From Caulobacter sp. AP07 (lineage in GTDB: Bacteria; Pseudomonadota; Alphaproteobacteria; Caulobacterales; Caulobacteraceae), in contig NZ_AKKF01000015.1 in NCBI RefSeq assembly GCF_000281955.1, forward strand, positions 1 through 44,975: DNA of 44,975 bases, written 5' to 3'. Each line of letters starts with the position of its first letter. The first letter of the stretch is position 1. Both the position numbers and the translations under genes were made by a program. The notes under the pieces were generated by a model that made no database searches, was not told where the DNA came from, and saw only the letters and a program-made list of their open reading frames with translations. Below, in pieces: positions 20,040 to 33,892 of this stretch.

Positions 20040-20070
20040 GGACCTTCGCGCCTCCGCCTTCCTCGCAACT

Positions 20071-20096
20071 GGCCCGCGTGGTTCGCCGCGCGGGCC
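20071..20096 (+). terminator. GC-rich hairpin between TBDR 1 and the phosphatase
   Basis: GGCCCGCG (20071-20078) pairs with CGCGGGCC (20089-20096) across a 10-nt loop, 17 bases before the phosphatase ATG. There is no T run, so it may be an intercistronic attenuator or RNA-stability hairpin rather than a full stop. Confidence 0.4.
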
Positions 20097-20112
20097 GCAT
20101 CTTGAGCGCCCC

Positions 20113-21402
20113 ATGCGTTTCGTCGCCAGTCTGACCAGCTTTCTCATCCTCGCCCTGACCGTTGGCCTCGCGACGCCGGCCGGCGCCCAGCAGGCCGGCG
20201 ACCGGCTCGAGAAGGTCGTCATCCTGACGCGCCACGGCGTCCGGGCGGCGATGTCCAGTCCCGAGAATCTGGAGACCGCCTCGGCCCGGCCCTGGCCGAG
20301 GTTCTCGGTTCCGGCCGGCCACCTGACGCCCAACGGCGCGGCGCTTTCGACGCTGTTTGGCGCCTACTACCGGGAACTCTACACGTCCGAAGGCCTGCTG
20401 ACCGCCGGCGACTGCGGCGCCGTCTACTACTGGGCCAATGTCACCCAGCGCACGATCGCCACGGCCGAGGCCTTGTCGGAGGGCCTGTCGCCCGGCTGCG
20501 CCAGCATGGTGCATACGGTCGGGGAAGGGCGCGTCGATCCGCTGTTCGAGCCCGTCGGCGCGGGTGTCGCCAAGCCTGACCTCGCCCTGGCCCGCGCGGC
20601 GGTGAAGGGCAGGGTCGGGGGCGGTCTGGCCGCTTGGAGCGCCAGCCACCGCGACGCCGTCGAGACGCTCGACGCCCTGCTGATGCAATGCGAGCGCCGG
20701 CCTTGTCCGGTGAACACCGGCGCCGGCAAGAGGCGCGTCATCGACGCCGTTCCGGCCTTCGACGACAACGGCGGTGAAACCGTCGGGATCGCCGGTCCCG
20801 AAGCCTTCGCCTCGGGGGTCACCGAGAGCCTGCTGATGGCCTGGGCCGACGGCCAGGACTTCGCCGGGCTGGGCTGGAAGGGGCTGGACCAGGACACCCT
20901 GTTGCGGGTCTTCGCCCTGCACCAGGCCGAGTTCGATCTGCGTCTGCGCACGCCCTATGTCGACCAGGTCGCCAGTTCCTACCTGGCGTCCCGTCTTCTC
21001 GCGACGCTACTGGGCGACGCCGATGGGGCCGCGATCGGCGAGGCGAGCTCCCGCATCGTGGTCGTGGTCGGCCATGACGGCACCCTGGCGATGCTGGCGG
21101 GCCTGCTGCGGCTGGATTGGACGGCGCCGGGCTACCAGCCCGGCCAGATCGCGCCGGGCGGGGCCCTGGTCTTCGAACGCTGGCGGCGCGCCGACGGCCA
21201 GCGTGTGATCCGCGCCCGTTTCACGGTCCAGACCCTGCCGCAATTGCGCGAGCGAACGCCCCTGAGTTCGACGACCCCGCCGGCGGTTTCGCCGCTCTTC
21301 ATTCCAGCCTGCAGCGAGGCCACGACGGCCTTTGACTGTCCGCTGGAGGTTTTTGACTGGACCGTGCGGTCCGCGGTCGATCGACGCTTCATCCATCCGT
21401 GA
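20113..21402 (+). CDS. secreted histidine acid phosphatase (phytase / glucose-1-phosphatase type)
   Basis: This 429-residue protein has a signal peptide (cleavage near residue 25, AGA-Q) and belongs to the branch-2 histidine phosphatases, which hydrolyse phytate, sugar phosphates and other monoesters in the periplasm. The catalytic motif is RHGVR (R40-R44, phosphohistidine H41). The proton-donor motif is HD (H321-D322) in VVGHDGTLA. Two details differ from textbook enzymes: RHGVRAA replaces RHGxRxP, and HDG replaces HDT. Several cysteines (for example in GDCGAVYYW and CERRPCP) fit disulfides of a periplasmic enzyme. It lies 73 bp after the TBDR, making a hydrolysis-plus-uptake unit. Phytate is the most likely substrate, as inference. 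Confidence 0.85.
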   Translation: MRFVASLTSFLILALTVGLATPAGAQQAGDRLEKVVILTRHGVRAAMSSPENLETASARPWPRFSVPAGHLTPNGAALSTLFGAYYRELYTSEGLLTAGDCGAVYYWANVTQRTIATAEALSEGLSPGCASMVHTVGEGRVDPLFEPVGAGVAKPDLALARAAVKGRVGGGLAAWSASHRDAVETLDALLMQCERRPCPVNTGAGKRRVIDAVPAFDDNGGETVGIAGPEAFASGVTESLLMAWADGQDFAGLGWKGLDQDTLLRVFALHQAEFDLRLRTPYVDQVASSYLASRLLATLLGDADGAAIGEASSRIVVVVGHDGTLAMLAGLLRLDWTAPGYQPGQIAPGGALVFERWRRADGQRVIRARFTVQTLPQLRERTPLSSTTPPAVSPLFIPACSEATTAFDCPLEVFDWTVRSAVDRRFIHP

Positions 21403-21579: not shown

Positions 21580-21591
21580 TGGTATAGTCCA
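21580..21591 (+). promoter_or_regulatory. GntR(HutC)-type operator before TBDR 2
   Basis: TGGTATAGTCCA lies inside the longer inverted repeat TTTGGTATAGTCCAAA (21578-21593). It differs by one base from the two TGGTATAGACCA sites at 31596 and 32536. It contains a TATAGT hexamer preceded by TGG, like an extended -10 box. It lies 173 bases before the TBDR start, in the 362-bp gene-free region 21403-21764. Confidence 0.65.
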
Positions 21592-21718
21592 AATGTCAGT
21601 CAAGTTGCCGGGCGCCGTTGCGCCGCGACGCTCCAACGATGCCGGCAAGCGTCCGTCAGGGGCTAGGTGAATTTCCTGCTTCACGGACAGGGCGCTGTCA
21701 CGCAGGTGTCGCCGCGAG

Positions 21719-21747
21719 CTGCTTTAAGCAGACTGGTTCATACCAGT
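21719..21747 (+). promoter_or_regulatory. two adjacent palindromes just upstream of TBDR 2
   Basis: CTGCTTTAAGCAG (21719-21731) directly abuts ACTGGTTCATACCAGT (21732-21747), 17 bases before the ATG at 21765. The second has TGGT-N4-ACCA half-sites like the GntR-type operators but a different core (TCAT). Together they could be a second operator or a structured untranslated leader. The remainder of 21403-21764 shows no gene. Confidence 0.5.
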
Positions 21748-21764
21748 TGGGGCGAAGAGCACTG

Positions 21765-24551
21765 ATGACGAAGCCAAATTCCGTTCGGGCCATGCGTCCG
21801 AACCTCAAGAACTTTTTGCTGGCCACCGTTTCGGCGCTCGTCGTCGGCGCCAGTTCGTCGGCTGCTCTCGCGCAGCAGGCTTCCGGTGATCAGGTCGACG
21901 AGGTGGTCGTCACCGGTTACCGGAAGTCGCTGAGCGACGCGCGCGACATCAAGCGGGATTCGGTCATCCAGAAAGACGCGATCGTCGCCGAAGACATGGC
22001 GAAGTTCCCGGAACTGAACCTGGCCGAATCGCTACAGCGCCTGCCAGGCGTGCAGATCAACCGCGAGGCGGGCGAGGGGCGGCGCATCTCGCTGCGTGGC
22101 CTGGGCCCGGATTTCGCCCGCGTGCAGCTCAACGGCATGGAAGTGCTGGGCAACGTCGACTCCGCGCAGGACAGCCGCGGCCAGCGTTCGCGCGACCGCG
22201 CCTTCGACTTCAACATCTTCGCCTCGGAACTGTTCTCGCGGGTGGAGGTCGAGAAGACCTTCGAGGCGGCCCAGAACGAGGGCGGCATGGCCGGCACGGT
22301 CGGCCTGTTCACTGGCAAGCCCTTCGATTACGCGCCGGGCGCCAAGGGTGCGGTGTCGCTCAAGCTGGGCACCAACGAATATACCAAGGACACCCAGCCC
22401 CGCGTCGCCGCCTTGTTCAGCCGGAACTGGGACAACAGGTTCGGCGCCTTGGTCTCGGTCGCCTACTCCAAGCGCGAAACCACGGAACAGGGCCACAATA
22501 CCTACAACTATGATCAGCCCAATGCAGGCGCCTTGAAGGCGCTGGTCGCCAAGGGTCTGGACATCTCCCATCTGAGCGCCGCGCAGCAGGCCAAGTTCCT
22601 GTCCGGCGACCTGTACTTCGCGGACGGTAACCGCATCTCCTCCTGGGACTCGAAGGCGGAGCGTCTCGGCGTGACGGCCGCGCTGCAGTGGAAGCCGGTG
22701 GACAATCTGCTGCTGACGCTCGACGCCCTGCACGGCGAGTTCACCACCCACCGCAACGAGATGCACCTCGCCACGCGGCCGCTCGCGTCCGCCGGCTCGG
22801 TGGCGTTCGACACCCCGGCCGGCGGGGTCTGGCCGGCCATCTTCCAGAAGGGGTCGATCATCAACGACCTCGCCTGGGACAAAGATAACTACGTCACAAA
22901 GACCGACGTCACCGGCACAACCTTCGGCAGCGAGCACCGCCGGTCGCTGAACGAAAACCGCTTCAACCAGCTGGCGCTGACCGGCAAGTGGGACGCGTCC
23001 GATCGCTTCTCGATCGACGGGCATGTCGGCTACGAGAAGTCGACCTACAAGACCCCCTATGACGACAAGCTCTACATGCGGGCCAAGGGCAACCTGATCG
23101 CCAACTATGGCGCCGACGGCCAGTCGGCTTCGTTCCAGTATCCGGGTTGGGATCCGACCAACCCGGCCAACTACGCCATGGATTCATTCTACTATCGCGG
23201 CTTCAACAATGAATCGGAGCTGCGGGAGGGCGTGCTGAACCTCCACTACAAGCTGAACGACGTGTTCACGCTGCGAGCCGGGGCGGCCTACCATCGCTTC
23301 ACGCAAGGCGGCAGGGACCTCTTCTATGACGACAACGTCAATGGAACCCGGTCCAAGACGCGAGGCACGTCCGTCGCCGACATCACCTCCGTGTTCACCA
23401 ACAACTCCGGTTCGTGGCTGGTCGGCGACTACGCCAAGGCCTTCGCGAAGTACAAGGAGTACCACCGGTTCGGGCCCAACACCGACGGGACCGGTGGCGC
23501 GCTCCAGGACATCGAGAACGTCTACGAGACCACGGAAGAGACCATTTCCGAATACGTGCAGGCCGACTGGGACAGCGAACTCTTCGGCAAGCGCTTCCGC
23601 GGCAATATCGGCCTGCGTGGCTACAGCACCGACACCCACAGCACCGGCTGGATCCAGGGCGACAGCTACGCCTATCTCGGCACGACGGACGTGAAAGGCA
23701 GCTATGAGGGCGTGCTGCCGGCCCTGAACACGGTGCTGGAACTGACGCCGGAGGTGCTGGTGCGCTTCTCCGCCACCCAGAACGTGAATCGTCCGGGGCT
23801 GGGCTCGATGGCGGCCGAGGGCAGCGCGTTCCAGGACACGGATTCCGGCGAGATCACGGCGTCCCGCGGCAATCCGAACCTCAAGCCCTACAAGGACACC
23901 ACGCTGGACGTGTCGGTGGAATACTATTTCGGCAAGGTAGGCCTGCTTTCGGCCAGCGTGTTCCAGAAGAACATCAAGAACTTCATCGGCTCGCAGACCC
24001 TCGAGAACGTCCCCTTCAGCCAGACGGGCGTCCCGTTCAGCACGATCCCGGGCGCGACGGCCAGCACCATCGTCTCGGAGTTCTCGATGCCGGTCAACGT
24101 CGCCGGCAAGACCAAGCTGACCGGCGTGGAACTGGCCGCGCAGACCCAGTTCTCGTTCTTGCCGGCGCCCTTCGACAACCTGGGCGCGGTGGCGAACTAC
24201 ACCTATGTCGACGCCGACGAGGCGCTCACCGGCATTTCGAAGACCAGCTACAACGTCACGCTCTACTACGAGACCGACCGCTGGGGCCTCCGGGGTTCAA
24301 TGAGCCACCGCACCCGCTGGTTCACCGGGCATAACGACTCGGTCATGAGCGCCAGCACGCGGGGCTTCGAGGGCTCGACCTATGTGGACGCGTCGGCCTT
24401 CTTGAACGTCACTGAAAAGCTCCAGCTCTCGCTGAATGCGATCAATCTGACGAACGAGACGGACACGCAGTTCTGGGGCCAGAACCGGTACCTGTACAAC
24501 CAGAACCAGAGCGGCACGACCTACATGATGGGGCTCAGCTACAAGTTCTAA
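21765..24551 (+). CDS. TonB-dependent receptor, Xanthomonas/Caulobacter subfamily (TBDR 2)
   Basis: This 928-residue outer-membrane receptor has a signal peptide (cleavage near residue 36, ALA-Q), TonB box EVVVTGYRK (46-54), and a plug with AKFPELNLAESLQRLPGVQ and ISLRGLGPDFARVQLNG, typical of the TonB-Xanth-Caul group. The barrel ends in MMGLSYKF. The reading frame is open upstream to 21618, but the signal peptide and a GAAGAG stretch place the start at the ATG at 21765. There is no STN domain, so it is not a sigma-signalling receptor. Two operator-like palindromes precede it. A strong terminator and then the sulfotransferase/hydroxylase operon follow. The ligand is unknown; the shared operator with a phospholipase C and a transporter hints at a phosphorus compound. 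Confidence 0.92.
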   Translation: MTKPNSVRAMRPNLKNFLLATVSALVVGASSSAALAQQASGDQVDEVVVTGYRKSLSDARDIKRDSVIQKDAIVAEDMAKFPELNLAESLQRLPGVQINREAGEGRRISLRGLGPDFARVQLNGMEVLGNVDSAQDSRGQRSRDRAFDFNIFASELFSRVEVEKTFEAAQNEGGMAGTVGLFTGKPFDYAPGAKGAVSLKLGTNEYTKDTQPRVAALFSRNWDNRFGALVSVAYSKRETTEQGHNTYNYDQPNAGALKALVAKGLDISHLSAAQQAKFLSGDLYFADGNRISSWDSKAERLGVTAALQWKPVDNLLLTLDALHGEFTTHRNEMHLATRPLASAGSVAFDTPAGGVWPAIFQKGSIINDLAWDKDNYVTKTDVTGTTFGSEHRRSLNENRFNQLALTGKWDASDRFSIDGHVGYEKSTYKTPYDDKLYMRAKGNLIANYGADGQSASFQYPGWDPTNPANYAMDSFYYRGFNNESELREGVLNLHYKLNDVFTLRAGAAYHRFTQGGRDLFYDDNVNGTRSKTRGTSVADITSVFTNNSGSWLVGDYAKAFAKYKEYHRFGPNTDGTGGALQDIENVYETTEETISEYVQADWDSELFGKRFRGNIGLRGYSTDTHSTGWIQGDSYAYLGTTDVKGSYEGVLPALNTVLELTPEVLVRFSATQNVNRPGLGSMAAEGSAFQDTDSGEITASRGNPNLKPYKDTTLDVSVEYYFGKVGLLSASVFQKNIKNFIGSQTLENVPFSQTGVPFSTIPGATASTIVSEFSMPVNVAGKTKLTGVELAAQTQFSFLPAPFDNLGAVANYTYVDADEALTGISKTSYNVTLYYETDRWGLRGSMSHRTRWFTGHNDSVMSASTRGFEGSTYVDASAFLNVTEKLQLSLNAINLTNETDTQFWGQNRYLYNQNQSGTTYMMGLSYKF

Positions 24552-24564
24552 GACGACCTGGACT

Positions 24565-24595
24565 GGGCGCTCCTTCCCTCCGGGAGGGAGCGCCC
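24565..24595 (+). terminator. strong hairpin after TBDR 2
   Basis: A 13-bp stem (one T-G wobble) with a 5-nt loop runs from GGGCGCTCCTTCC (24565-24577) to GGAGGGAGCGCCC (24583-24595), followed by TTCT. It starts 13 bases after the TBDR stop and ends 18 bases before the next start codon. It should stop or thin out transcription into the operon behind it. Confidence 0.8.
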
Positions 24596-24613
24596 TTCTG
24601 TGCGGCCAGAAAC

Positions 24614-25252
24614 ATGATCATTTCCCATAGCCACCGTTTCATCTTCGCCGCGGTGCCCAAGACCGGCACCCATTCCGTGCGCCAGGCCCTGCGCGAGCAA
24701 CTGGGCGACGCGGACGTCGAGCAGGTGGGATTGTTCGTCGACAAGCGCTTCCCGTGGGTGGATCTGGCGGCGATCCGGCATGGCCACCTGTCTCTGCGGC
24801 AGGTGCGTCCATACCTCGGCGAGGAGGCCTTCGGCGGCTATTTCAAGTTCGCCTTCGTGCGCAATCCGTTTGACCGCTTCGTCTCGTACTGCGCCTTCAT
24901 GCTGCGTGACGGCGACGTCTTCCAGCGGCAGCCGCGGGAGGTGATGCGCCACTTTCTCTTCGGGGAGCCGCCGGAACACCACATCCTGTTCCAGCCGCAA
25001 GCTTCGCTGCTGGTGGGCGAGGATGGCGAGACCCTGTTGGCCGACCGGGTCGGTCACGTCGAGGACATGCAGGGGTCGTATGACGCGATCTGCGCGCGCA
25101 TCGGCATTCCCTCCCGCCCACTCGACCGCGTCAACGGCAGCCGGCGCGGCGACTATCGTCGCTACTATGACCAGGCCCTGATCGACGGCGTCGCCGCGCG
25201 CTACGCGCAGGATCTGGAACTGTTCGGCTACACCTTCGAAGGCATGCGATGA
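24614..25252 (+). CDS. sulfotransferase-family protein (Sulfotransfer_2-like)
   Basis: This is a 212-residue soluble protein of the PAPS-dependent sulfotransferase superfamily, which moves sulfate from PAPS to a hydroxyl or amine. The 5'-phosphosulfate loop is visible as VPKTGTHSVRQAL (about 14-26). The 3'-phosphate-binding segment is FAFVRNPFDRFVSY (about 79-92), with the typical R and S. No signal peptide or membrane segment, so it acts in the cytoplasm. There is no clear ribosome-binding site. Its stop overlaps the next start (ATGA), tying it to the hydroxylase. Acceptor unknown: a carbohydrate, small molecule or peptide are all possible. Confidence 0.82.
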   Translation: MIISHSHRFIFAAVPKTGTHSVRQALREQLGDADVEQVGLFVDKRFPWVDLAAIRHGHLSLRQVRPYLGEEAFGGYFKFAFVRNPFDRFVSYCAFMLRDGDVFQRQPREVMRHFLFGEPPEHHILFQPQASLLVGEDGETLLADRVGHVEDMQGSYDAICARIGIPSRPLDRVNGSRRGDYRRYYDQALIDGVAARYAQDLELFGYTFEGMR

Positions 25253-25878
25253 GCGCCATCCCCCTCGAGCCGGCCGCCAATCCGCGCAAGACCATGGGCG
25301 TTCGCAAGCTCGGCCCCGTCGATATCACCGCGCTGCGAGCGGCCGTGCTGGCGATCCCCGAGGACGTCTGGGACGCGGAGAACGCCGGCAAGCCGAACAG
25401 GTTCGAGGTGCTGGACGAGACGCGCCACATCGTCTTCCGCTTCGTCGACAGCCCTCGCGACTGGCGCGGTTCGCACGATCGCGCGGCCTGGCCCCAATGG
25501 CGCGGTTTGCTGGAGCCGGTGCTGGCGCAAGCCGTCCGTGGCTACGGTTATGCACGGGGGGTGTTTCCGCGGGTGATGTTCGCGAGGATGCCGCCGGGCG
25601 GGGTGATCCATCCGCACATCGACGCCAACCCGGCGGCGAAGTGGCCGCACAAGATTCACGTGCCGGTGTCGACCAACCCCGGGGTGGTGTCCTTCTTCGG
25701 CGGCGGCGAACACTATTTTCCGCCGGGCGAGGCGGTGGAGGTCAACAACCTTGGCCCGCACTGGGTGCGCAACGGCGGCGACACCGACCGCATCCATCTG
25801 ATCTTCGAGTATTACGACGCCGACCAGCCGGAACCGGGCTGGCTGGAGCCGTTCCTGCTGGCCGGCGCGGCGCGGTGA
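25249..25878 (+). CDS. aspartyl/asparaginyl beta-hydroxylase-like Fe(II)/2-oxoglutarate oxygenase (1)
   Basis: This 209-residue protein resembles the aspartyl/asparaginyl beta-hydroxylase family, a branch of cupin-fold Fe(II)/2-oxoglutarate dioxygenases. Candidate iron ligands are H121, H123 or D125 in IHPHIDAN and H171 in LGPHWVRNGG, followed by RIHLIFEYYD, where R190 and H192 could bind 2-oxoglutarate. It has no signal peptide. It overlaps the sulfotransferase upstream (ATGA) and the TPR-sulfotransferase downstream (GTGA), so hydroxylation and sulfation appear to be parts of one pathway. Family members act on protein Asp/Asn residues, free amino acids or peptide natural products, so the substrate stays open. 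Confidence 0.82.
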   Translation: MSAIPLEPAANPRKTMGVRKLGPVDITALRAAVLAIPEDVWDAENAGKPNRFEVLDETRHIVFRFVDSPRDWRGSHDRAAWPQWRGLLEPVLAQAVRGYGYARGVFPRVMFARMPPGGVIHPHIDANPAAKWPHKIHVPVSTNPGVVSFFGGGEHYFPPGEAVEVNNLGPHWVRNGGDTDRIHLIFEYYDADQPEPGWLEPFLLAGAAR

Positions 25879-27806
25879 AGTCCTCCGCCAGTTCCAGCGC
25901 CGGTTCCAAGGCGCGCGACGCCCTGTTGCAGGAGGCCAGGGACCTGCGCTCGCGCCAGGGCGTCCCGGAGGCGTTGGCCGCGCTCGCGCGGCTGCAGGCG
26001 CTGCATCCCCGGTTCAGCCGCCTGTATCAGGAGCGCGGCCACTGCCATGTCCTGCTTGGGGATGCGTCGGCGGCCATCGACGCGTTGCGGGAGGCCGTGC
26101 GCCTCAATCCGACGCTGCCGGCCAGCTGGGACATGCTGGAGCAGCTTTACCGCATGCTGGGCGACACCGCCCAGGCGGCCACGGCGGCGGCGCATCTCGA
26201 CACCTTGAGACAGCTCCCCCCGGAGGTGGTGGTGGCCAACAGCCTGCTTGCCGACGGCGATCTGGCGCCGGCGGAGCAGGTCATCCGGGACTACTTGCGC
26301 AAGGACGGCGACAATGTGGGCGCCCTGCGCCTGCTGGCGCGGATCCGCAAGGAGCGCGACGCGCCCGCTGAAGCCGAGTCGTTGCTGAAATCGGTGCTCG
26401 CGCGCGCGCCGGACTATCACGCGGCGCGCCTGGACTACGCCATGGTGCTGTTGCAGCGGCAGAAGCACCTGCAGGCGCGGCGGGAGGCCGAGCACCTGCT
26501 TGGGCACGACCCGGACAACCGCGACTACCTCAAGCAGTACGGCGCGGCCTGCGTCGGCCTGGGCGACCACGAGCCGGTGATCGATCTCTATGAGAGGCTG
26601 CTGGCCGGCCAGGCTCAATCAGGCACGGAAGTCGCCGACCTGCGCCTGTGGCGGGCCAACGCCCTGAAGGTCACGGGCAGACAGCAGGAGGCCATCGCGG
26701 ACTATCGCGCGTCCCTGGCGGCGCGGCCGGACCATGGCGTGGCCTGGTTCAGCCTCGCCAACCTCAAGACCTATCGCTTCACCGACGATGACATCGCGCG
26801 CATGCGCGCCGCGGAATCCCGGCCTGCCATCCAGGACATGGACCGCGTCTATCTGTGTTTCGCGCTGGGCAAGGCGCTGGAGGACCGGGGCGACTACGCG
26901 TCCTCGTGGCGATACTACGAGCGTGGCAACGCGGCGCGGCGGGTGACCAGCCGCTATCGCCCCGAGGTCGCGGAAGCCTGCGCGCTCCGACTGAAGCGGG
27001 TCTTCACCGCCGAGTTCTTCGCCGCGCGCGCCGGCTGGGGCGTGGCTGATCCGGCGCCCATCTTTATCCTGGGGTTGCCGCGTTCGGGCTCGACGCTGAT
27101 CGAGCAGATTCTGGCCTCTCATTCCCAGGTGGAGGGCACGCAGGAACTGACCGAAATCGACCGATATGCGGCCGAACTCTGCGGTCGTGATCCGGATTGC
27201 GGCTTGCCGCTGGATCCCGAGGCGTTGCTGCGCCTGACGGCCGGGGAGGCCCGGACACTCGGCGAGCGCTTCCTGGCCGAAACCGACGCCTATCGCAGGC
27301 AGGGCAGGCCGTTCTTCATCGACAAGATGCCGAACAATTTCTGGCACATCGGCTTGATCCGCCTGATGTTTTCCCGAGCAACGATCATCGATGTGCGGCG
27401 CGAACCCATGGCCTGCTGCTTCAGCAACCTCAAGCAGCTGTTTGGCACGACCAACCAGGAATTCACCTACGGGGTGGATGACATCGCCCGCCACTACCGC
27501 ACCTATCTCGACCTCATGCGGCATTGGGACGACGTGCTGCCGGCGCGGGTGCTGAGGGTGCGATACGAGGATGTGGTCGAGAATCTCGAAGGCGGCGTGC
27601 GGCGCATGTTGGAGCATTGCGGACTGCCCTTCGAGCCGGCTTGCCTGGCCTTCCACGAGACCCGGCGCAGCGTGCGCACGCCCAGTTCCGAACAGGTGCG
27701 CCAGCCCATCGGCCGGGAGGGGCTCGCGCAATGGCGACACTACGCGCCCTGGCTCGCGCCGCTGCGGGCGGCGCTGGGCGACGCCTTGACCGGTTACAGG
27801 GACTGA
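25875..27806 (+). CDS. TPR-repeat sulfotransferase fusion
   Basis: This 643-residue cytoplasmic protein has about eight TPR-like helical pairs in the first 300 residues (for example ASAAIDALREAVRLNPTLPASW and QEAIADYRASLAARPDHGVAW) and a sulfotransferase domain from about 395. The PAPS loop is FILGLPRSGSTLIEQIL (about 396-412). The second motif is the MPNNFWHIGLIRLMFSRA region with DVRREPMACCFSNL near 510-525. The long open frame starts further upstream, but homology begins after the hydroxylase; the GTG at 25875 overlaps the hydroxylase stop (GTGA) and I take it as the start. TPR arrays usually hold a protein or peptide, so a polypeptide acceptor is plausible. Confidence 0.87.
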   Translation: MKSSASSSAGSKARDALLQEARDLRSRQGVPEALAALARLQALHPRFSRLYQERGHCHVLLGDASAAIDALREAVRLNPTLPASWDMLEQLYRMLGDTAQAATAAAHLDTLRQLPPEVVVANSLLADGDLAPAEQVIRDYLRKDGDNVGALRLLARIRKERDAPAEAESLLKSVLARAPDYHAARLDYAMVLLQRQKHLQARREAEHLLGHDPDNRDYLKQYGAACVGLGDHEPVIDLYERLLAGQAQSGTEVADLRLWRANALKVTGRQQEAIADYRASLAARPDHGVAWFSLANLKTYRFTDDDIARMRAAESRPAIQDMDRVYLCFALGKALEDRGDYASSWRYYERGNAARRVTSRYRPEVAEACALRLKRVFTAEFFAARAGWGVADPAPIFILGLPRSGSTLIEQILASHSQVEGTQELTEIDRYAAELCGRDPDCGLPLDPEALLRLTAGEARTLGERFLAETDAYRRQGRPFFIDKMPNNFWHIGLIRLMFSRATIIDVRREPMACCFSNLKQLFGTTNQEFTYGVDDIARHYRTYLDLMRHWDDVLPARVLRVRYEDVVENLEGGVRRMLEHCGLPFEPACLAFHETRRSVRTPSSEQVRQPIGREGLAQWRHYAPWLAPLRAALGDALTGYRD

Positions 27807-27809
27807 CCC

Positions 27810-28787
27810 ATGCGGCTGTCGCGCCCCTTCTTCCAGCTCCCTGTGCTCTTCGACGTGGCGCGTCTGCAGGCCGAGGTCGCGGCGTTGCCGACGCAGGCAT
27901 GGGTTTCACACCCCGACAGCCTGCCTGGCAACAGCGCCGCGCGGTTGATCAGCGCCGGCGGCGGCGAGACGGATTCCGTGTACGGACAGATGCTGCCGAC
28001 ACCCTGGTTCGCGGACATGCCCTACCTGAGCCAGGTCCTGGCGGGCTTTGGCGTGGTATGGGGCCGCTCGCGGTTGATGCGCCTGGCGCCGGGCGCGGCC
28101 GTGCCCGAGCATGCCGATATCAACTACCACTGGCACACGCGGGTGCGGCTGCACGTTCCGATCTTCACCTGGCCGGAGGTCCGCTTCCACTGCGACGGAC
28201 AATCCGTGCACATGGCGGAGGGCGAAGCCTGGATCTTCGACAACTGGCGCCCGCACCATGTGGAGAACAAGGCCAGCGCCGAGCGTATCCATCTCGTCGC
28301 CGACACCACCGGCACGGCGGCGTTCTGGCGGTTCGCCTGCGGGCAGGCGCCGCCGCGCGGAGAATGGCGGACGTTGGCCTGGGATCCCGAGATCCGTCCG
28401 GAATTGCTCACCGAGGGCGATCAGCGCTCGCCGGTGATGCCCGCCGCCGAAGTGCAGCTGTTGGTCGAGGACCTGCGAGCGGAACTGACGGTCGCCACGG
28501 ACGCGGCTGAAGCCAGGACGCGCGCCGTGCGGTTCGGCCTGCTGCTGGAGAGCTTCGTGTTTGATTGGCGCCAGCTCTGCGCGCTGCATGGCGTCGGCGG
28601 GCGGGCGCGACCGGACTTCCTGCGCCTGGCCGGCGCCGTGCGCGAAGCCGCCAAGCCGCTCGCCGATGGGCTGGTCATGCGCACCAACAATGTCAGCGCG
28701 CTGCTGGTGCTCGAAAAGCGCGTGCTGCAGCACCTGGTCGAGGACGATGCCGCGCCGCGGGCCGGCCGGACTTCCGGCGAAGGATGA
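27810..28787 (+). CDS. aspartyl/asparaginyl beta-hydroxylase-like oxygenase (2)
   Basis: This is a 325-residue second Fe(II)/2-oxoglutarate oxygenase of the operon. The N-terminal 190 residues hold the fold: H101-A-D103 in VPEHADINYHWH gives two likely iron ligands, H149 or H150 in WRPHHVENK the third, and SAERIHLVADTTG the probable 2-oxoglutarate arginine. Residues about 200-325 form an extra helical domain absent from copy 1. No signal peptide. It starts three bases after the TPR-sulfotransferase stop and its own stop overlaps a tiny 11-codon frame. The two oxygenases are clearly different in sequence, so they probably modify different positions or substrates. Confidence 0.82.
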   Translation: MRLSRPFFQLPVLFDVARLQAEVAALPTQAWVSHPDSLPGNSAARLISAGGGETDSVYGQMLPTPWFADMPYLSQVLAGFGVVWGRSRLMRLAPGAAVPEHADINYHWHTRVRLHVPIFTWPEVRFHCDGQSVHMAEGEAWIFDNWRPHHVENKASAERIHLVADTTGTAAFWRFACGQAPPRGEWRTLAWDPEIRPELLTEGDQRSPVMPAAEVQLLVEDLRAELTVATDAAEARTRAVRFGLLLESFVFDWRQLCALHGVGGRARPDFLRLAGAVREAAKPLADGLVMRTNNVSALLVLEKRVLQHLVEDDAAPRAGRTSGEG

Positions 28788-28819
28788 CGAACCTGGAACA
28801 GTATTTCGACCAAGCCTAA
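28784..28819 (+). CDS. 11-codon mini-ORF overlapping the oxygenase stop
   Basis: An ATG overlapping the oxygenase stop (ATGA at 28784-28787), preceded by GGCGAAGG, opens an 11-residue frame, MTNLEQYFDQA, closed by TAA at 28817. The overlap geometry is the same as between the genes upstream. It may be the stub of a lost gene (many TPR proteins start like this), a short translated end of the operon, or chance. The Tyr beside Glu and Asp is the type of context tyrosine sulfotransferases favour, which is the only reason to link it to the operon. Confidence 0.25.
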   Translation: MTNLEQYFDQA

Positions 28820-29391
28820 GCCATGTCCGCGCGATCGATCTGATCGCGAAGAAGGTCATGATAGGTCTCGAAGCCGGCCACCTTGGCGTCCGGCGCCTTG
28901 CCGGCTTCGTCGTAGCCGCGCAGCCGCAGGGCGGCCTGCGCCGCCGGATCGGCCAGGAACGCCTCGATCTCCTCCTCGCTCATCGGGCCGCCCTGCAGGG
29001 CCAGACTCTGCAGCGACGCCTTGCTGAGGCATGCGAGATAGGCGGGGTCCACCGCCACCCGATATCGCTTGGCCGCCACGTGCAGGCGGATCGGCTCGGT
29101 GACCTCGGGACCGAACGCGCGGGCCAGGTAGCCGGCGCTGATGTGCTCGTGGCGTGTGTCGATGCCGCGGTCGGCGGCGTTCTCGCCGGCCTTCTGCATC
29201 ATGTGGCCGACGTCATGCAGCAGGGCGGCGGCGACCAGGGCCGGCGGCGCGCCGTCGACCTTGGCATGATGCGCCGTCTGCAGCGCGTGCTCCAGCTGGC
29301 TGACGCCCTCCCCATAACGGAGACCGCCCAGTTGGGCGAAGAGTTCGGTAAGCTCGGCCAGGAAAGCATCGGCCGCGGGACGAGAGGTCAT
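28816..29391 (-). CDS. PhnZ-type HD-domain oxygenase (phosphonate catabolism family)
   Basis: This is a 191-residue cytoplasmic protein of the HD-domain mixed-valent di-iron oxygenases typified by PhnZ, which cleaves the C-P bond of 2-amino-1-hydroxyethylphosphonate to glycine and phosphate. The metal ligand set is visible: H35 (QLEHALQ), H59-D60 and H63 (LLHDVGH), H81 or H83 (RHEHISAG), H104 (RLHVAAKRY, with K108) and D161. From memory, H104, K108 and D161 match the PhnZ numbers. E28 is a candidate substrate-amine ligand. LQGGPMSEEE near 132-141 is also family-typical. No PhnY-type hydroxylase is next to it; the nearest 2-oxoglutarate oxygenases are the Asp/Asn-type ones convergent to it. 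It lies 50 bp downstream of the phospholipase C gene on the same strand. Confidence 0.85.
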   Translation of the reverse strand: MTSRPAADAFLAELTELFAQLGGLRYGEGVSQLEHALQTAHHAKVDGAPPALVAAALLHDVGHMMQKAGENAADRGIDTRHEHISAGYLARAFGPEVTEPIRLHVAAKRYRVAVDPAYLACLSKASLQSLALQGGPMSEEEIEAFLADPAAQAALRLRGYDEAGKAPDAKVAGFETYHDLLRDQIDRADMA

Positions 29392-29441
29392 CTAGGATCC
29401 GTGTAAGGCATTGAACTGGGTCAGACGTCGGGCGAGCGCGC

Positions 29442-31571
29442 CTACAGGCGCATCCGTCCGATGCTTGGGTCGGTGCGGCTGGCTCGTCCCGTTTCGAGGT
29501 GGCCGGCCAGGCGCTGGGTGAAGGACGGATCGTCCAACACGGTCAGGGTCAGGTCGTACCAGTGGTCGCTGCCGCGCAGGTCCCACACCGAGCGGACGAC
29601 GCCCTTGGATGGCAGCATCAGGTTCTGGCGGGCCTCGCCTTCGGCCAGGGGATAGGTTTCGTCCATCCGCGCCGTGATCATGGCCGATCCGCCTCCGGCC
29701 CCGGCCAGTCTGAGGACCAGACGGGAGCGGGCGTCGGCCGCGACCGATACGCTGGGCTGCGGCCGCGACGCATCGCCGGCGAACCGCCGATAAAAGCCAT
29801 TTGGGCCATGGACTGTCAGGTCGTAGGGCCCAGGCGCGCGGCCTGCGCGGTTCCAATGTCCGGCCGCGTACGTTCCGCCGGCCGCCAGGGTGAAGCGCCA
29901 GGGACCGTCGCGGTCGGTGTTGTCGAACACCTGGAACACCGCGCCCGTCCGGCCCTTGTTGACCAGGTCGATCCAGAGGTCGCCGTCGTGGACGCGGGCG
30001 TCGGCCGACAGCACGTAGGGCAGGGGACGCGCGCCGCGCTGAGGCCCCTCCTGGGTCGAGGCCGTCTGCCTTTCCGGGATCCGCAGGGTCGGGGCGGCCT
30101 TGGACCGGGCCACGCGCGCCATGTAGTCCGCGGTCTGCGGCAGGGCCAGCGCCGTCCAGTCCTGGTTCGGCGTGGCGAAGTCGAAGGCCGAGGTCAGGTC
30201 GCCGCAGACCGCCCGCCGCCAGTCGCTGATGTTGTCCTCGCGCACCCCGAAGCGCTTCTCGAGGAACCGCAGCGTCGAGGTGTGGTCGAATACCTCCGAG
30301 CAGACGAAGCCGCCCCGGCTCCACGGCGAGACCACGATCGCCGGTACGCGGATGCCCAGGCCCAGCGGATGAGCGCCCTGGTTGGCGACCTCGGCCTGGC
30401 CGTAGTCCTTGATCTCGCCCGTGACCGGAACCGAGCTCCAGCCCTGCTCGGCCGTCAGCGGCGGCATGGGCGGCAGCATGTGGTCGTAGAAGCCGCCGGC
30501 CTCGTCGTAGTTGACGATGAATACGGTCTTGGCGAACACCTCGGGGTGGTCGACCAGCGCCTTGATCAGCTCGGCGCAGACGTGTTCGCCCTTCGAGGGC
30601 TCGGCCTGGGGGTGTTCGGACAGGTCAGCGGCGGTGACGATCCACGACACCTGCGGCAGGCGGTCGGCGGCGACGTCGGCGCGAAACGCCTCAACCAGCT
30701 GCTGGCCGTCCGAGCGGGTGCGGTCGGCGCCGGTCTTGCCTTCCGACACCCAGGCGCGGCCGCGTTCATAGAGCGGCGAATCCTTGGCGCAGGGGCGGAA
30801 ATTCATGAACACCGACAGGATGTTGTCGCCGAAGTTGTCGTGCTCCTGATAGACCTTCCAGCTGACGCCTGCGGCCTGCAGGCGCTCGGCGTAGGTCATC
30901 CAGTCGTGCGGCCCCTTGGCCATGTCCTTGTCCTGGGCCATGTCGGCGCTGGGCGTCTCGTCCTCGCCGTAGTTGCTCATCTCCGGATCGCCGCCGACCT
31001 TGCCGCCGCCGTTGCAGCCCGTCCAAAGGTGCAGGCGGTTCGGATAGGTCTGGGTCAGGGTCGAGCAGTGATAGGCGTCGCAGACCGTGAAGGCGCTGGC
31101 CAGGGCGTGGTAGAACGGCAGGTCCGAGGCCTTGTAGTAGACCATCCGCTTGTGCAGCTCGCCCGAGTGGCCCCACTGGTCGTAGCGGCCGCCGTTGACG
31201 ATGGTGATCGCCGCCTGGTGGCCCTGGTCCGCGCCGTCGACCGTGTAGGCGTTGGTCACCGAGGCGTCGCCGTGGAACGGGGCGACGAAGCCGTCCGGAT
31301 GTTCACCGCTAGGCTGGCGCCAGACCGAGGCTCCGCCGGGCAGCCGTTGCGGACGAGGATCGCCCAGGCCCCGCACGCCGTTCAGCGCGCCGAAATAGTG
31401 ATCGAACGCACGGTTCTCCTGCATGAAGATCACCACGTGCTCGACGTCCATGATCGTGCCGGTGCGGTGGCGCGCGGGGATGGCCATGGCCCTGGCGACG
31501 GTGGCCGGCAGCAGGCCGACGGCGGCCCCGGCAGCCGCGGAACGTAGGAAGGCGCGGCGGTCCGTCGTCAT
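29442..31571 (-). CDS. Tat-exported phospholipase C / phosphoesterase (1)
   Basis: This is a 709-residue enzyme of the non-haemolytic, phosphocholine-type phospholipase C family (phosphoesterase domain plus two C-terminal DUF756 domains), which cleaves phospholipid head groups or related phosphoesters outside the cytoplasm. The Tat signal is DRRAFLRSAAAGAAVGLL at the N-terminus. The catalytic core opens with VVIFMQENRAFDHYFG (near residue 45), where Glu and Asn are metal ligands. The C-terminal ~200 residues are beta-rich, with the paired DUF756 pattern. The frame runs upstream to 31772, but the Tat signal and GGGAGA before the ATG fix the start at 31571. A TGGTATAGACCA operator lies 24 bases upstream, and the GntR gene is divergent. 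Confidence 0.9.
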   Translation of the reverse strand: MTTDRRAFLRSAAAGAAVGLLPATVARAMAIPARHRTGTIMDVEHVVIFMQENRAFDHYFGALNGVRGLGDPRPQRLPGGASVWRQPSGEHPDGFVAPFHGDASVTNAYTVDGADQGHQAAITIVNGGRYDQWGHSGELHKRMVYYKASDLPFYHALASAFTVCDAYHCSTLTQTYPNRLHLWTGCNGGGKVGGDPEMSNYGEDETPSADMAQDKDMAKGPHDWMTYAERLQAAGVSWKVYQEHDNFGDNILSVFMNFRPCAKDSPLYERGRAWVSEGKTGADRTRSDGQQLVEAFRADVAADRLPQVSWIVTAADLSEHPQAEPSKGEHVCAELIKALVDHPEVFAKTVFIVNYDEAGGFYDHMLPPMPPLTAEQGWSSVPVTGEIKDYGQAEVANQGAHPLGLGIRVPAIVVSPWSRGGFVCSEVFDHTSTLRFLEKRFGVREDNISDWRRAVCGDLTSAFDFATPNQDWTALALPQTADYMARVARSKAAPTLRIPERQTASTQEGPQRGARPLPYVLSADARVHDGDLWIDLVNKGRTGAVFQVFDNTDRDGPWRFTLAAGGTYAAGHWNRAGRAPGPYDLTVHGPNGFYRRFAGDASRPQPSVSVAADARSRLVLRLAGAGGGSAMITARMDETYPLAEGEARQNLMLPSKGVVRSVWDLRGSDHWYDLTLTVLDDPSFTQRLAGHLETGRASRTDPSIGRMRL

Positions 31572-31595
31572 GGCTTCGTTCTCCCATCTCCACAT

Positions 31596-31607
31596 TGGTA
31601 TAGACCA
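31596..31607. promoter_or_regulatory. TGGTATAGACCA operator in the phospholipase C / gntR divergent region
   Basis: The site has the HutC-class GntR core GT-N-TA-N-AC with flanking TGG/CCA symmetry. It lies 24 bases before the phospholipase C start and 148 bases before the GntR start. The identical 12-mer occurs at 32536. Confidence 0.75.
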
Positions 31608-31755
31608 GATGAGAAGATCGTTCGGCGAAACTTTCGTGAAAGCTGGGAAACGCTTCGCTTCGGTCGTCAGTGGTCTGATCCAGTTGCTTGACCCGGGAGG
31701 AGCGCCCTCCCATCCTCTCCGGATGGCGGGATTCGACCGCTGACCAGGTCGCCCG

Positions 31756-32475
31756 ATGCAGCAGCCCGACACCCTCCACTATCTCGGAGTGCGCGACGAC
31801 ATCGCCGCGCGGATCAGCGGTGGCGAGTTCAAGGCGGGTGAGCGCCTGCCGTCGGAGCGCCAAATGCAGGTCGGCGGCGGCGTGGCGCGCGGCACCGTCC
31901 GCGAGGCGCTGTTCCAGCTGGAGGCCGAGGGGGTCATCTACCGCAAGGACCGCAGCGGCTGGTACGTTTCGCCGCCGCCGGTGGTCTACGACCCGACGCG
32001 CTGGGAAGGTTTCATGTCCTACGTCGAGGCGCAAGGACGGCGGCCGGAAACCGAGACGCTAAGCAAGATCGAAATCGCCTGCGACGGCATGCTGGCCGAG
32101 ATCTTTTCGCGCCCGATCGGCGCGCCGATGTACTGGATCCGCCGTCGGCGCTCCGTTGACGGCCGGGCCGTGCTGATCGAGAGCATCGTCGTCGACGCGT
32201 CCCTGGCGCCGGGCCTCGTGGAGCATGACCTCGACGGCTCGCTGACCAACGTCCTGAAGCAGGTCTACGGTATCGGCGTCGCGCGCAACAAGGTCGACAT
32301 GCAGCCCTGCGCCCTGACCCGTGACGTGGCCGAGGCCCTGCGGGTCAAGTCCGGGTTGCCGGGCCTCAGCCTGGTCCGTACCTGCTACGACGCCCAGGGC
32401 CGGGTGGTCGAGTTCGACCGAGAACACTGGCGCCACGACGCCTTGAAGATCAGCGTCGACATCCGCGTCCGCTAG
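31756..32475 (+). CDS. GntR-family transcriptional regulator, HutC/UTRA class
   Basis: This is a 239-residue cytoplasmic repressor-type protein. A winged helix-turn-helix occupies residues about 8-75 (GERLPSERQMQVGGGVARGTVREAL is the recognition core, spread over 28-52). A UTRA ligand-binding domain follows (about 90-235) with RPETETLSKIE and the central PMYWIRRRRSVDGR. HutC-class regulators bind GT-N-TA-N-AC sites and respond to amino acids, amino sugars or phosphonates; PhnF and PhnR belong here. Matching sites flank it at 31596 and 32536, and a near match is before TBDR 2. Its neighbours (phospholipase C, PhnZ-type oxygenase, DUF5690 transporter) favour a phosphorus-compound effector. The ATG has no strong ribosome-binding site. 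Confidence 0.9.
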   Translation: MQQPDTLHYLGVRDDIAARISGGEFKAGERLPSERQMQVGGGVARGTVREALFQLEAEGVIYRKDRSGWYVSPPPVVYDPTRWEGFMSYVEAQGRRPETETLSKIEIACDGMLAEIFSRPIGAPMYWIRRRRSVDGRAVLIESIVVDASLAPGLVEHDLDGSLTNVLKQVYGIGVARNKVDMQPCALTRDVAEALRVKSGLPGLSLVRTCYDAQGRVVEFDREHWRHDALKISVDIRVR

Positions 32476-32485
32476 GCCATGAAAC

Positions 32486-32506
32486 GGGGGGCGCCCCCCC
32501 CCCCCC
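32486..32506. repeat. G6-CG-C13 homopolymer tract
   Basis: Six G (32486-32491), CG, then thirteen C (32494-32506) lie in the 97-bp gap between the GntR and DUF5690 genes. The G and C runs can pair. The C run may vary in length by slippage and could also be miscounted in sequencing. Confidence 0.8.
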
Positions 32507-32535
32507 ACGACGCCGTCATCCGGCTGTCGTGGGCA

Positions 32536-32547
32536 TGGTATAGACCA
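32536..32547 (+). promoter_or_regulatory. TGGTATAGACCA operator before the DUF5690 transporter
   Basis: A 12-base match to the site at 31596. It ends 25 bases before the start codon, nearly the same distance as the site before the phospholipase C gene (24). It overlaps a TATAGA hexamer preceded by TGG, which fits repression by occlusion of a -10 box. Confidence 0.75.
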
Positions 32548-32572: not shown

Positions 32573-33892
32573 ATGATTTCAGGTCCTCAACGTTGGCTGG
32601 AGCGAGCCAATCCGCTGGCGTTCACCCTGTTCGCGGGCCTGGCCGGCTTTTGCGCCTATTTCTCGATGTACGCCTTTCGAAAACCGTTCGCGGCGGCGAC
32701 CTTCGGCGCGGTCGACGGCTGGACCTTCGCCGTCGACTACAAGATCGCCCTGGTGCTGGCCCAGGTGGCCGGTTACGCCGCTTCCAAGCTGATCGGGGTC
32801 AAGGTCATTTCCGAAATCACCCCGTCACGGCGCGGCGTGGCGATCCTCGGATTGATCGGCTTCTCCTGGCTGGCCCTGCTGGCCTTCGCGGTGGTTCCCG
32901 CGCCCTGGAATGTCGCGGCCCTGTTCCTGAACGGCCTGCCGCTGGGCATGATCTGGGGGCTGGTGTTCGGCTTCATGGAAGGGCGGCGCACCTCCGAGGT
33001 TCTGGGCGCCATCCTCTGCGCCAGCTTCATCCTGTCGTCCGGCGTCGTGAAGTCGGTCGGCAAGTGGCTGATGGTCGATGTCGATGTCTCGCCGTTCTGG
33101 ATGCCCGCCGCCACTGGCGCGATCTTCCTGCCGCTGCTGGCGGTTTCGGTGTGGGCCCTGATGCAGCTGCCGCCGCCCAGCCCCGCCGACGAGGCCGCCC
33201 GCGTGCGTCGCCAGCCGATGGACAGCGCCCAGCGCCGCGCCTTTCTGGTCGCCTACGCGCCCGGCGTGGCGCTGCTGGTGATGGCCTATGTTCTGCTGAC
33301 CGCCTTTCGCGACTTCCGCGACAACTTCGCCGCCGAGCTCTGGACCGCCCTGGGCTTCGGCGAGGCTTCCGGCGTCTTCACCGCCAGCGAGCTGCCGGTC
33401 GCCGCCATCGCCCTGGCGGTGATGGGCGCGGTGATGCTGGTTCGCGACAACCTGCGGGCGCTGCTGGTGATGCACGGCGTCATCCTGGCCGGCTTCCTGC
33501 TGCTGGGCCTCTCGACCCTGGCCTTCCAGGCCCACCTGCTGCCGCCCCTGGTCTGGATGATCCTGACGGGCGCCGGCCTCTACATGGCCTACACGCCGTT
33601 CAACGCCATGCTGTTCGACCGGATGATCGCCTTCAGCGGCCGGATCGGCACGGCGGGCTTCCTGATCTACGTGGCCGACGCCTCGGGCTATCTCGGCAGC
33701 GTCGCCCTGCTGATCTGGCGCAGCTTCGCCATGGTCCGGCTGGACTGGCTGGGTTTCTTCATCGCCAGCGCCTATGCGACGAGCGTCGTCGGCGCCGTCT
33801 GCACGATCCTGGCCGGCCTCTACTTCCTGCGCCGTCGTTCGACACGTGACGCCCGCGCCCAGGCGGCGGCGGCCAGGGATGCGCTCGCCTGA
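32573..33892 (+). CDS. DUF5690-family MFS-like transporter
   Basis: This 439-residue inner-membrane protein has about twelve hydrophobic segments. The sequence FSMYAFRKPFAAATF near residue 25, then GLPLGMIWGLVFGFMEGRR (about 122-140), RDFRDNF (about 245) and YTPFNAMLFDR (about 341), matches what I recall of DUF5690, a major-facilitator-like family without an assigned substrate. The AFRKP motif also recalls organophosphate:phosphate antiporters of the GlpT/UhpT kind. AGGGGCG precedes the ATG. It lies downstream of gntR, behind its own operator, and is convergent with phospholipase C 2. It probably imports the product released by the phospholipase and/or taken up by TBDR 2; that is inference. 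Confidence 0.8.
   Translation: MISGPQRWLERANPLAFTLFAGLAGFCAYFSMYAFRKPFAAATFGAVDGWTFAVDYKIALVLAQVAGYAASKLIGVKVISEITPSRRGVAILGLIGFSWLALLAFAVVPAPWNVAALFLNGLPLGMIWGLVFGFMEGRRTSEVLGAILCASFILSSGVVKSVGKWLMVDVDVSPFWMPAATGAIFLPLLAVSVWALMQLPPPSPADEAARVRRQPMDSAQRRAFLVAYAPGVALLVMAYVLLTAFRDFRDNFAAELWTALGFGEASGVFTASELPVAAIALAVMGAVMLVRDNLRALLVMHGVILAGFLLLGLSTLAFQAHLLPPLVWMILTGAGLYMAYTPFNAMLFDRMIAFSGRIGTAGFLIYVADASGYLGSVALLIWRSFAMVRLDWLGFFIASAYATSVVGAVCTILAGLYFLRRRSTRDARAQAAAARDALA

What the first reader, a model, noticed from the sequence alone, without database searches (positions are those of the whole stretch)
21580..32547. Three near-identical GntR-type operators define a scattered regulon
TGGTATAGACCA occurs identically at 31596 and 32536, and TGGTATAGTCCA at 21580. 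All lie upstream of genes: a Tat phospholipase C, a DUF5690 transporter and TBDR 2. The first two sit 24 and 25 bases before their start codons. The core fits the GT-N-TA-N-AC site of HutC-class GntR proteins, one of which is encoded between the sites, and as I recall mycobacterial PhnF binds this same sequence. I infer one regulon that joins outer-membrane uptake, phosphoester cleavage and inner-membrane transport.
Basis: partly seen in the sequence, partly recalled or inferred. Interest (0 to 1): 0.75.

Follow-up and report, generated by a model that had tools for sequence, protein, structure and literature searches.

The report
GntR-operator regulon for phosphonate scavenging
Short near-identical DNA sites in this Caulobacter-like genome sit in front of genes for an outer-membrane receptor, a phospholipase C and a predicted inner-membrane carrier, recur with the same regulator gene beside predicted C-P-bond-breaking enzymes in other alphaproteobacteria, and likely form a switch that would turn on uptake and breakdown of natural phosphonates when phosphate is scarce.

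Summary
TGGTATAGWCCA occurs 3 times in the 5.6-Mb genome, all in this window, 0 times backwards; 23 one-mismatch copies all lie inside ORFs. Of 101 genomes 16 hold the full-length regulator gene; all 16 carry 2-3 exact sites (41, 40 at the same promoters), none of 45 other same-genus genomes carries two. In 80 regulator loci, from Caulobacter to Sphingomonas and Gluconacetobacter, the palindrome TGGTNTANACCA occurs 94 times, against at most 7 for 159 control palindromes. Partners point to phosphonates: a PhnZ/TmpB-like HD oxygenase, and an FAD oxidase (TIGR03364) with phosphonatase PhnX, present in all 16 genomes and within the locus in 14, though not in this one. So the regulon likely serves aminoethylphosphonate-type phosphonate use. 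Pho-box-like repeats stand before three operators, predicting PhoB activation plus GntR repression. DUF5690 is predicted to be a major-facilitator carrier. Binding, inducer and substrate are untested.

The parts
21580..21591 (+). Operator C (distal), TGGTATAGTCCA, 173 bp before TBDR2
   Evidence: TGGTATAGTCCA in 11, TGGTCTAGTCCA in 2, TGGTATAGACCA in 1 of 14 readable TBDR2 upstream regions, own included
21696..21712 (+). Pho-box-like 11-bp direct repeat TGTCACGCAGGTGTCGC before operator D
   Evidence: score 11 of 12 in 14 of 14; consensus recalled
21734..21745 (.).
21765..24551 (+). TBDR2, TonB-dependent receptor (TIGR01782); ATG start preferred to TTG 21618
24614..25252 (+). Sulfotransferase-family protein (PF03567), likely in the TBDR2 operon
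   Evidence: next to TBDR2 in relatives
25249..25878 (+). Asp/Arg beta-hydroxylase-family protein (PF05118)
25875..27806 (+). TPR-sulfotransferase (PF13469); open frame begins at 25497, likely true start GTG 25875
27810..28787 (+). Second Asp/Arg beta-hydroxylase-family protein (PF05118)
28816..29391 (-). HD-domain oxygenase-like protein of PhnZ/TmpB type (TIGR03276 208.3 bits, cut-off 214.6), likely in operon with PLC1
29442..31571 (-). PLC1, phosphocholine-specific phospholipase C family (TIGR03396), Tat-like signal
31596..31607 (+). Operator A, TGGTATAGACCA, 24 bp before PLC1
   Evidence: identical in 16 of 16 regulator genomes
31625..31641 (-). Pho-box-like repeat TTTCACGAAAGTTTCGC reading towards PLC1
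   Evidence: the weakest of the three
31756..32475 (+). GntR/HutC (UTRA) regulator, PhnR-like
32514..32530 (+). Pho-box-like repeat CGTCATCCGGCTGTCGT, 5 bp before operator B
   Evidence: same spacing in 16 of 16
32536..32547 (+). Operator B, TGGTATAGACCA, 25 bp before DUF5690
   Evidence: TGGTATAGACCA 11, TGGTCTAGACCA 4, TGGTATAGTCCA 1 of 16
32573..33892 (+). DUF5690 (PF18943), predicted MFS carrier

Best explanation
Four near-palindromic TGGTNTANACCA-type sites stand before a TonB-receptor gene set, a phospholipase C gene with an HD-oxygenase-like gene behind it and a DUF5690 carrier gene, and are likely the operators of the GntR/UTRA regulator encoded between them, which is predicted to repress phosphonate-scavenging genes until a phosphonate inducer appears. 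Inferred mechanism: without inducer a dimer sits on operators A, B and D, 19-25 bp before the start codons, where it would block the promoter; under phosphate starvation PhoB would bind the 11-bp repeats just upstream; both low phosphate and an aminoethylphosphonate-like inducer (or its breakdown product) would be needed for full expression. TBDR2 would bring the substrate through the outer membrane, the exported PC-PLC-type enzyme would free phosphonate or phosphate head groups from lipids, DUF5690 would carry the free phosphonate into the cytoplasm, and the enzymes would release phosphate: TIGR03364 oxidase (AEP or N-methyl-AEP to phosphonoacetaldehyde) then PhnX, and the HD enzyme on (R)-1-hydroxy-2-aminoethylphosphonate. 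In this genome the oxidase-PhnX pair is not under these operators but in a LysR-linked cluster on contig C8.
For: Specificity: 3 of 3 exact copies of the genome are at these promoters. Co-occurrence in 101 genomes: the 16 with the full-length regulator gene all have 2-3 exact copies; of the 45 other same-genus genomes 6 have one and 0 have two; of those 6 copies 4 lie inside ORFs, 1 overlaps an ORF end, 1 is intergenic. Position: A identical in 16 of 16, B exact palindrome in 15 and one change in 1 of 16, C and D in 14 of 14 readable. Deeper: in 80 regulator loci the palindrome occurs 94 times exactly; 9 permuted controls reach 1, 150 random same-GC palindromes reach 7 (mean 0.63); 79 of 80 loci have a copy with at most one change (the exception is L310, not an orthologue). 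A copy lies within 300 bp upstream of HD in 56 of 66, a PC-PLC homologue 54 of 59, DUF5690 51 of 60, TBDR2 23 of 26, but PhnX 0 of 50 and the oxidase 12 of 47, which lie further inside operons. Phosphonate link: the HD protein hits TmpB (6npa, E 6e-30) and PhnZ (4n71, 1e-27) with the aligned motifs kept; TIGR03364 and PhnX over cut-off in 16 of 16 regulator genomes against 9 of 45 other same-genus genomes, inside the operator-bearing locus in 14 of 16 (12 on one contig; G030 and G046 across contig breaks by matching neighbours). No PhnW at E 1e-30 in the own genome or the 8 other regulator genomes among the 61 searched, matching the pbfD-with-phnX-alone clusters of PMC10590968 (section 8). DUF5690 also stands next to the oxidase-PhnX pair (G005, G020, G051, G034, G017, own C8) or the HD gene (G008, G066) without this regulator. 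Pho-like repeats score 9 or more of 12 in 14/16 (A), 16/16 (B), 14/14 (D) promoters against 1.6% of 20,000 random 60-bp windows. Regulator residues R35, R45 (NagR Arg38, Arg48) and R130, R132 (NagR Arg133, Arg135) are invariant or nearly so in 24 homologues (PMC4333415 and PMC4918961 passages).
Against: No binding or expression data. Relatives are not independent, so the Fisher values overstate. The regulator scores under the PhnR cut-off and the HD protein just under the TIGR03276 cut-off; 0 of 61 genomes have an HD hit over it. PLC1 is a PC-PLC by family, which speaks for ordinary choline lipids. No PhnY/TmpA-type hydroxylase was seen in the ORFs scanned (the two PF05118 proteins are of another family), so the HD enzyme would need ready-made hydroxyphosphonate. 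In this genome and in G053 (about 29 kb away on the same contig) the oxidase-PhnX pair has no operator with at most one mismatch near it. In G030 and G045 PhnX is split over two frames, so it may be broken there or the assembly slipped. G057 lacks the HD gene behind PLC1 and has only a 51% paralogue before TBDR2. DUF5690 also occurs in genomes without PhnX over cut-off. The phosphate-contacting arginines are widely kept in HutC proteins (PMC4918961). C-D spacing (109-366 bp) shows no helical phasing.
Confidence: 0.72

Rival explanations
1. A GntR regulon for phospholipid and organophosphate scavenging: PC-PLC frees phosphocholine-like head groups, DUF5690 imports the phosphate ester, and phosphonate enzymes are only occasional passengers.
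For: PLC1 and PLC2 are TIGR03396 phosphocholine-specific PLC over cut-off; in other genera operators also stand before PI-PLC (PF16670; L259, L261) and PF01663 phosphodiesterase (L256, L258; also L094 of G006); the DUF5690 model's first Foldseek rows are the glucose-6-phosphate carrier.
Against: The HD gene is found in 66 of 80 regulator loci, a PC-PLC homologue in 59 of 80, and site A stands before HD where PLC1 is missing (L084-L086); oxidase plus PhnX in 16 of 16 regulator genomes.
Confidence: 0.2
2. A PhnF-like phosphate-responsive repressor: the regulator senses inorganic phosphate itself and the genes are a general phosphate-starvation set.
For: Operator resembles that recalled for mycobacterial PhnF, which represses a phosphate transporter by binding two sites (PMC7866108 passages); Pho-like repeats upstream.
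Against: PhnF model only 69.8 bits against 237.8 for PhnR; no Pst/Phn ABC family among the window ORFs scanned; PhoB-type sites would already sense phosphate.
Confidence: 0.06
3. The sites belong to another HutC protein (NagR/DasR-type) that happens to share the operator word.
For: The NagR operator used in PMC4333415 is GTGGTCTAGACCAC (passages), and a DasR paper prints the same word (search listing only).
Against: Two or more exact copies track this regulator gene (16 of 16 against 0 of 45) and copies are present in 79 of 80 loci fetched by it; no amino-sugar gene among the targets identified.
Confidence: 0.02

Closest known systems
PhnR-type GntR regulator of phosphonate utilisation (NCBIfam TIGR03337)
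   Same: Best family match of the regulator over its whole length; phosphonate genes as partners
   Different: 59 bits under the cut-off; here with TonB receptor, phospholipase C and DUF5690; no PhnW hit, no ABC transporter among the ORFs scanned
NagR/DasR HutC repressors and dre sites
   Same: Same operator word TGGTCTAGACCA, same two base-reading arginines
   Different: Wing Gly69 of NagR aligns with Arg66 here; targets are phosphonate, not amino-sugar, genes
AepR-PhoB dual control of 2-AEP use in Pseudomonas putida (PMC9311074, passages)
   Same: Nutrient-stress regulator plus substrate regulator on AEP genes
   Different: AepR is a LysR-type regulator needed for induction; here a GntR protein is predicted to repress, and an outer-membrane receptor is included
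PbfD-PhnX pathway (PMC10590968, abstract, passages and section 8)
   Same: TIGR03364 oxidase with phnX and no phnW
   Different: The words GntR, DUF5690, Caulobacter and phospholipase do not occur in its main text
PhnZ/TmpB HD oxygenases
   Same: Sequence and the aligned HD, His and Asp motifs
   Different: No PhnY/TmpA-type hydroxylase gene seen beside it; under the cut-offs of the three models hit

Membership tests
GntR family, HutC subfamily | N-terminal GntR winged helix plus C-terminal UTRA domain | tested here: met
   PF00392 and PF07702 over cut-off
GntR family, HutC subfamily | Operator of the GT-N-TA-N-AC type bound by the protein | not testable with these tools
   Sites present and co-inherited; binding needs a gel shift
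PhnR (TIGR03337) | Score over the curated cut-off 296.75 | tested here: not met
   237.8 bits; works like it, not filed as a member
PhnF (TIGR02325) | Score over the curated cut-off 156.8 | tested here: not met
   69.8 bits
Phn-HD oxygenase (TIGR03276) | Score over the curated cut-off 214.6 | tested here: not met
   208.3 bits in the window, 210 in G002, 0 of 61 genomes over it; just under
PhnZ/TmpB mixed-valent diiron oxygenases | Homology with the conserved HD, His and Asp ligand motifs | tested here: met
   Alignments to 6npa and 4n71 keep EH, HDxGH, HE, HVAAKRY, DE.GK; ligand roles recalled
Phosphocholine-specific phospholipase C (TIGR03396) | Score over the curated cut-off 580.25 | tested here: met
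   PLC1 752.6, PLC2 892.1 bits
Major facilitator superfamily (DUF5690) | MFS fold | tested here: met
Organophosphate:phosphate antiporters within MFS | Sequence membership and phosphate-binding arginines | tested here: inconclusive
   Foldseek ranks 1-5 are G6PT and GlpT is rank 29, but no sequence hit and other MFS carriers tie by Z; R36-K37 invariant, likeness to GlpT Arg45-Lys46 recalled
Pho regulon | Pho box bound by PhoB | tested here: inconclusive
   Repeats conserved and enriched but scored against a recalled consensus; no binding data

The most novel reading that the evidence does not exclude
A TonB-dependent phosphonolipid-scavenging system: freshwater and soil alphaproteobacteria strip phosphonate head groups (AEP, N-methyl-AEP, hydroxy-AEP) from membrane lipids or glycans of protists with phospholipase C-type enzymes, import them through a dedicated outer-membrane receptor and the DUF5690 carrier, and break the C-P bond, all under one GntR/PhoB AND gate. 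To my knowledge it would be the first outer-membrane route for phosphonates, and it gives DUF5690 a function.
Probability: 0.3. Interest if true: 0.82.

Novelty: new variant of a known kind. Interest (0 to 1): 0.64.

Why it matters
It turns three short repeats into a defined, widely conserved regulon with named enzyme families, assigns a likely substrate class to an unstudied carrier family (DUF5690; no paper of the library prints the name) and ties outer-membrane TonB uptake and phospholipase C to predicted C-P bond cleavage. Which bacteria use natural phosphonates in fresh water and soil, and in what chemical form they are taken up, is open; this gives deletable genes and a reporter promoter. 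Ten paper searches listed, by titles and starts of abstracts, nothing that describes such a regulon; most subscription papers are not in that library.

Tried and rejected
Chance repeat: rejected. Mobile or structural repeat: not supported, the promoters share the 12-mer and the Pho-like repeat at fixed gene positions, not longer sequence (by eye). Regulon scattered through the genome: rejected for exact copies, all in one locus; among the 16 regulator genomes only G006 has a further exact copy, on another contig before a PF01663 phosphodiesterase gene. Autoregulation through site A: weak; A lies about 150 bp before GntR and a conserved TTGACC-type box nearer the gene does not overlap it (by eye); in 37 of 79 loci a site lies 120-245 bp upstream of GntR. 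Loop between C and D: spacing not in helical phase in the 12 genomes listed. Other window genes as members: apart from A-D no copy of TGGTNTANACCA with at most one mismatch exists in the window; a two-mismatch one at 42267 lies before the POT gene but such copies are expected about four times by chance. DUF5690 by sequence to a solved structure: nothing. PhnF operator in print: paper not held; string search gave only an unrelated paper. PhnW as first enzyme: no hit in the own genome. L310 (Acidimicrobiia, 31% identity) is not an orthologue; it was kept in the count of 80. Presence counts are tblastn hits at 1e-10, so the PLC1 and TBDR2 rows (59 and 63 of 80) include other homologues. One search's printout was cut in the middle; counts come from one search, which used all 80 loci. 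Of 62 candidate ORFs behind 44 otherwise unexplained operator copies 11 were scanned with Pfam (one, ten); two of the 11 had no family. TIGR03276 and TIGR02326 were searched in 61, not 101, genomes.
Full report
What was checked. The three sites exist at the stated coordinates and spacings. In the whole genome (326 contigs, 5,615,958 bases; the window is contig C15) TGGTATAGWCCA occurs exactly three times, all here, and the backwards pattern not at all. Allowing one mismatch gives 23 more places, against 10 for the backwards control, and all 23 fall inside an ORF (ORFs chosen by length and GC3, not a curated annotation).

A fourth operator. Directly before the TBDR2 ATG (21765) stands TGGTTCATACCA (21734-21745, gap 19 bp). 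With that start codon an operator stands at the same place in all three promoters: 24, 25 and 19 bp before the gene. Site 21580 is a second, distal copy. Both are kept in 14 of 14 TBDR2 upstream regions that could be read among the 16 regulator genomes, own included.

Gene content. The regulator (31756-32475) has GntR and UTRA domains; its best NCBIfam model is PhnR TIGR03337 at 237.8 bits, under the cut-off 296.75; every other model is below 83 bits, HutC 79.9 and PhnF 69.8. PLC1 (29442-31571) and PLC2 (33957-36101) are phosphocholine-specific phospholipases C over cut-off; PLC1 starts MTTDRRAFLR, a Tat-like signal.

Co-inheritance. In the own genome plus 100 relatives the full-length regulator gene is present in 16, all of the same genus, with an interrupted fragment in G059. 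The same 101 genomes were scanned for the exact motif. All 16 have two or three copies: 41 in all, 40 at the A, B and C positions, 1 in G006 before a PF01663 phosphodiesterase gene. Of the 45 other same-genus genomes 6 have one copy and none two (Fisher 5e-15 for two or more, not corrected for kinship). Of those six copies four lie inside ORFs, one overlaps an ORF end (G016) and one is intergenic before a PF01663 gene in G038, an 87% complete genome in which no regulator was found. In the 40 genomes of other families 11 have one or two copies, 15 in all; 14 of the 15 lie inside ORFs and one, in G085, is intergenic.

Deeper conservation. A scan of genome contigs with an alignment of 24 regulators gave 80 loci from Caulobacter, Phenylobacterium, Brevundimonas, Asticcacaulis, many Sphingomonadales, Niveispirillum, Gluconacetobacter and a Hoeflea-labelled bin, plus one distant Acidimicrobiia hit. 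In their 1.46 Mb the palindrome TGGTNTANACCA occurs 94 times exactly and 139 times with one change; 9 palindromes with permuted half-sites reach at most 1 exact copy, 150 random ones of the same GC at most 7, mean 0.63 exact and 19 with one change. 79 of 80 loci hold a copy with at most one change, against 26-43 loci for the six random controls printed first. Of 233 such sites 177 lie within 300 bp upstream of a listed gene; for TBDR2 in 23 of 26 loci, mostly 15-28 bp before the start. Of the remaining sites, three scanned target genes are TonB receptors of another type (L257, L266, L287), two PI-PLC (PF16670; L259, L261), two PF01663 phosphodiesterases (L256, L258), one a metallophosphoesterase (L283), one has weak PF04185 and beta-propeller hits (L259) and two have no family (11 of 62 candidate ORFs); many unscanned ones are 930-1040 aa long where one search shows receptor hits.

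What the regulon does. In G026 and G029 the DUF5690 gene is followed by a TIGR03364 FAD oxidoreductase (412 and 402 bits, cut-off 285) and PhnX, phosphonoacetaldehyde hydrolase (334 and 339 bits, cut-off 220). Over the 16 regulator genomes the pair lies behind DUF5690 in five, between the TBDR2 gene set and HD in nine (two of these, G030 and G046, on a separate contig with matching neighbours), and away from the locus in two: the own genome and G053, there about 29 kb off. Both families are over cut-off in 16 of 16 regulator genomes and 9 of 45 other same-genus genomes; in G030 and G045 PhnX is split over two frames. TIGR03364 includes PbfD1; PbfC and PbfD enzymes oxidise N-methyl-AEP, some also AEP, to phosphonoacetaldehyde; pbfD genes other than D1 are most often with phnX alone (PMC10590968, abstract, passages and section 8). 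No PhnW was found in the own genome. So the enzymes predict two routes: AEP or N-methyl-AEP by oxidase and PhnX, and hydroxy-AEP by the HD enzyme, which the review PMC10574752 describes for PhnZ as giving glycine and phosphate (passages).

How the switch may work. Just upstream of A, B and D stand 11-bp-spaced repeats like a Pho box: B 5 bp before the operator in 16 of 16, D 20-21 bp in 14 of 14, A 17 bp in 10 of 16 by best score. Scores of 9 or more of 12 occur in 14/16, 16/16 and 14/14 against 1.6% of random windows (consensus recalled; related sequences). A is the weakest. In Caulobacter crescentus the PhoB regulon is reported to hold TonB receptors and phospholipase C (PMC11208175 passages), and AEP genes of P. 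putida are under PhoBR plus a substrate regulator (PMC9311074 passages). The operator between box and start codon fits repression. NagR's Arg38 and Arg48, which read the GG of GTGGTCTAGACCAC (PMC4333415 passages), align with R35 and R45, while its wing Gly69 aligns with Arg66. R130 and R132 align with phosphate-binding arginines of NagR; these are common in HutC proteins (PMC4918961 passages). Shown: sites, conservation, families. Inferred: repression, inducer, PhoB binding, direction of transport, lipid source.

Verdict. It is a new variant of known regulators and pathways, with an unstudied carrier and an outer-membrane step as the unexpected parts.

Noticed in passing
window 24614-28787: TBDR2 is followed by a sulfotransferase, two Asp/Arg beta-hydroxylase-family proteins and a TPR-sulfotransferase; tblastn finds the TPR-sulfotransferase in 35 and the first sulfotransferase in 29 of 80 regulator loci. 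They may modify the receptor or its ligand; not explained.
   Followed up: partly
G000:C8, about 45700-52600 (locus L211): A second, LysR-linked phosphonate cluster in the same genome: TonB receptor, TIGR03364 oxidase, PhnX, DUF5690 paralogue.
   Followed up: partly
L096 (G057) 3158-3933: A diverged HD oxygenase (51% identity) sits between the distal and proximal operators of TBDR2, while the usual HD gene behind PLC1 is missing.
   Followed up: partly
window 15555-21402: ECF sigma factor, FecR, TonB receptor with STN domain and an AppA-like phytase/acid phosphatase: another phosphorus-linked receptor system next door, without the operator.
   Followed up: no
window 32494-32506: A run of 13 C between the regulator gene and operator B; possible sequencing or assembly slip.
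   Followed up: no
G059:C315:62-511 (L043, L088): An interrupted remnant of the regulator gene (2 TGA) in a 61% complete genome without exact motif copies but with a full-length DUF5690 match.
   Followed up: no
window 40203-44919: POT-family peptide carrier and a DUF5695 protein (PF18951, 1273 bits) of unknown function at the window's end.
   Followed up: no
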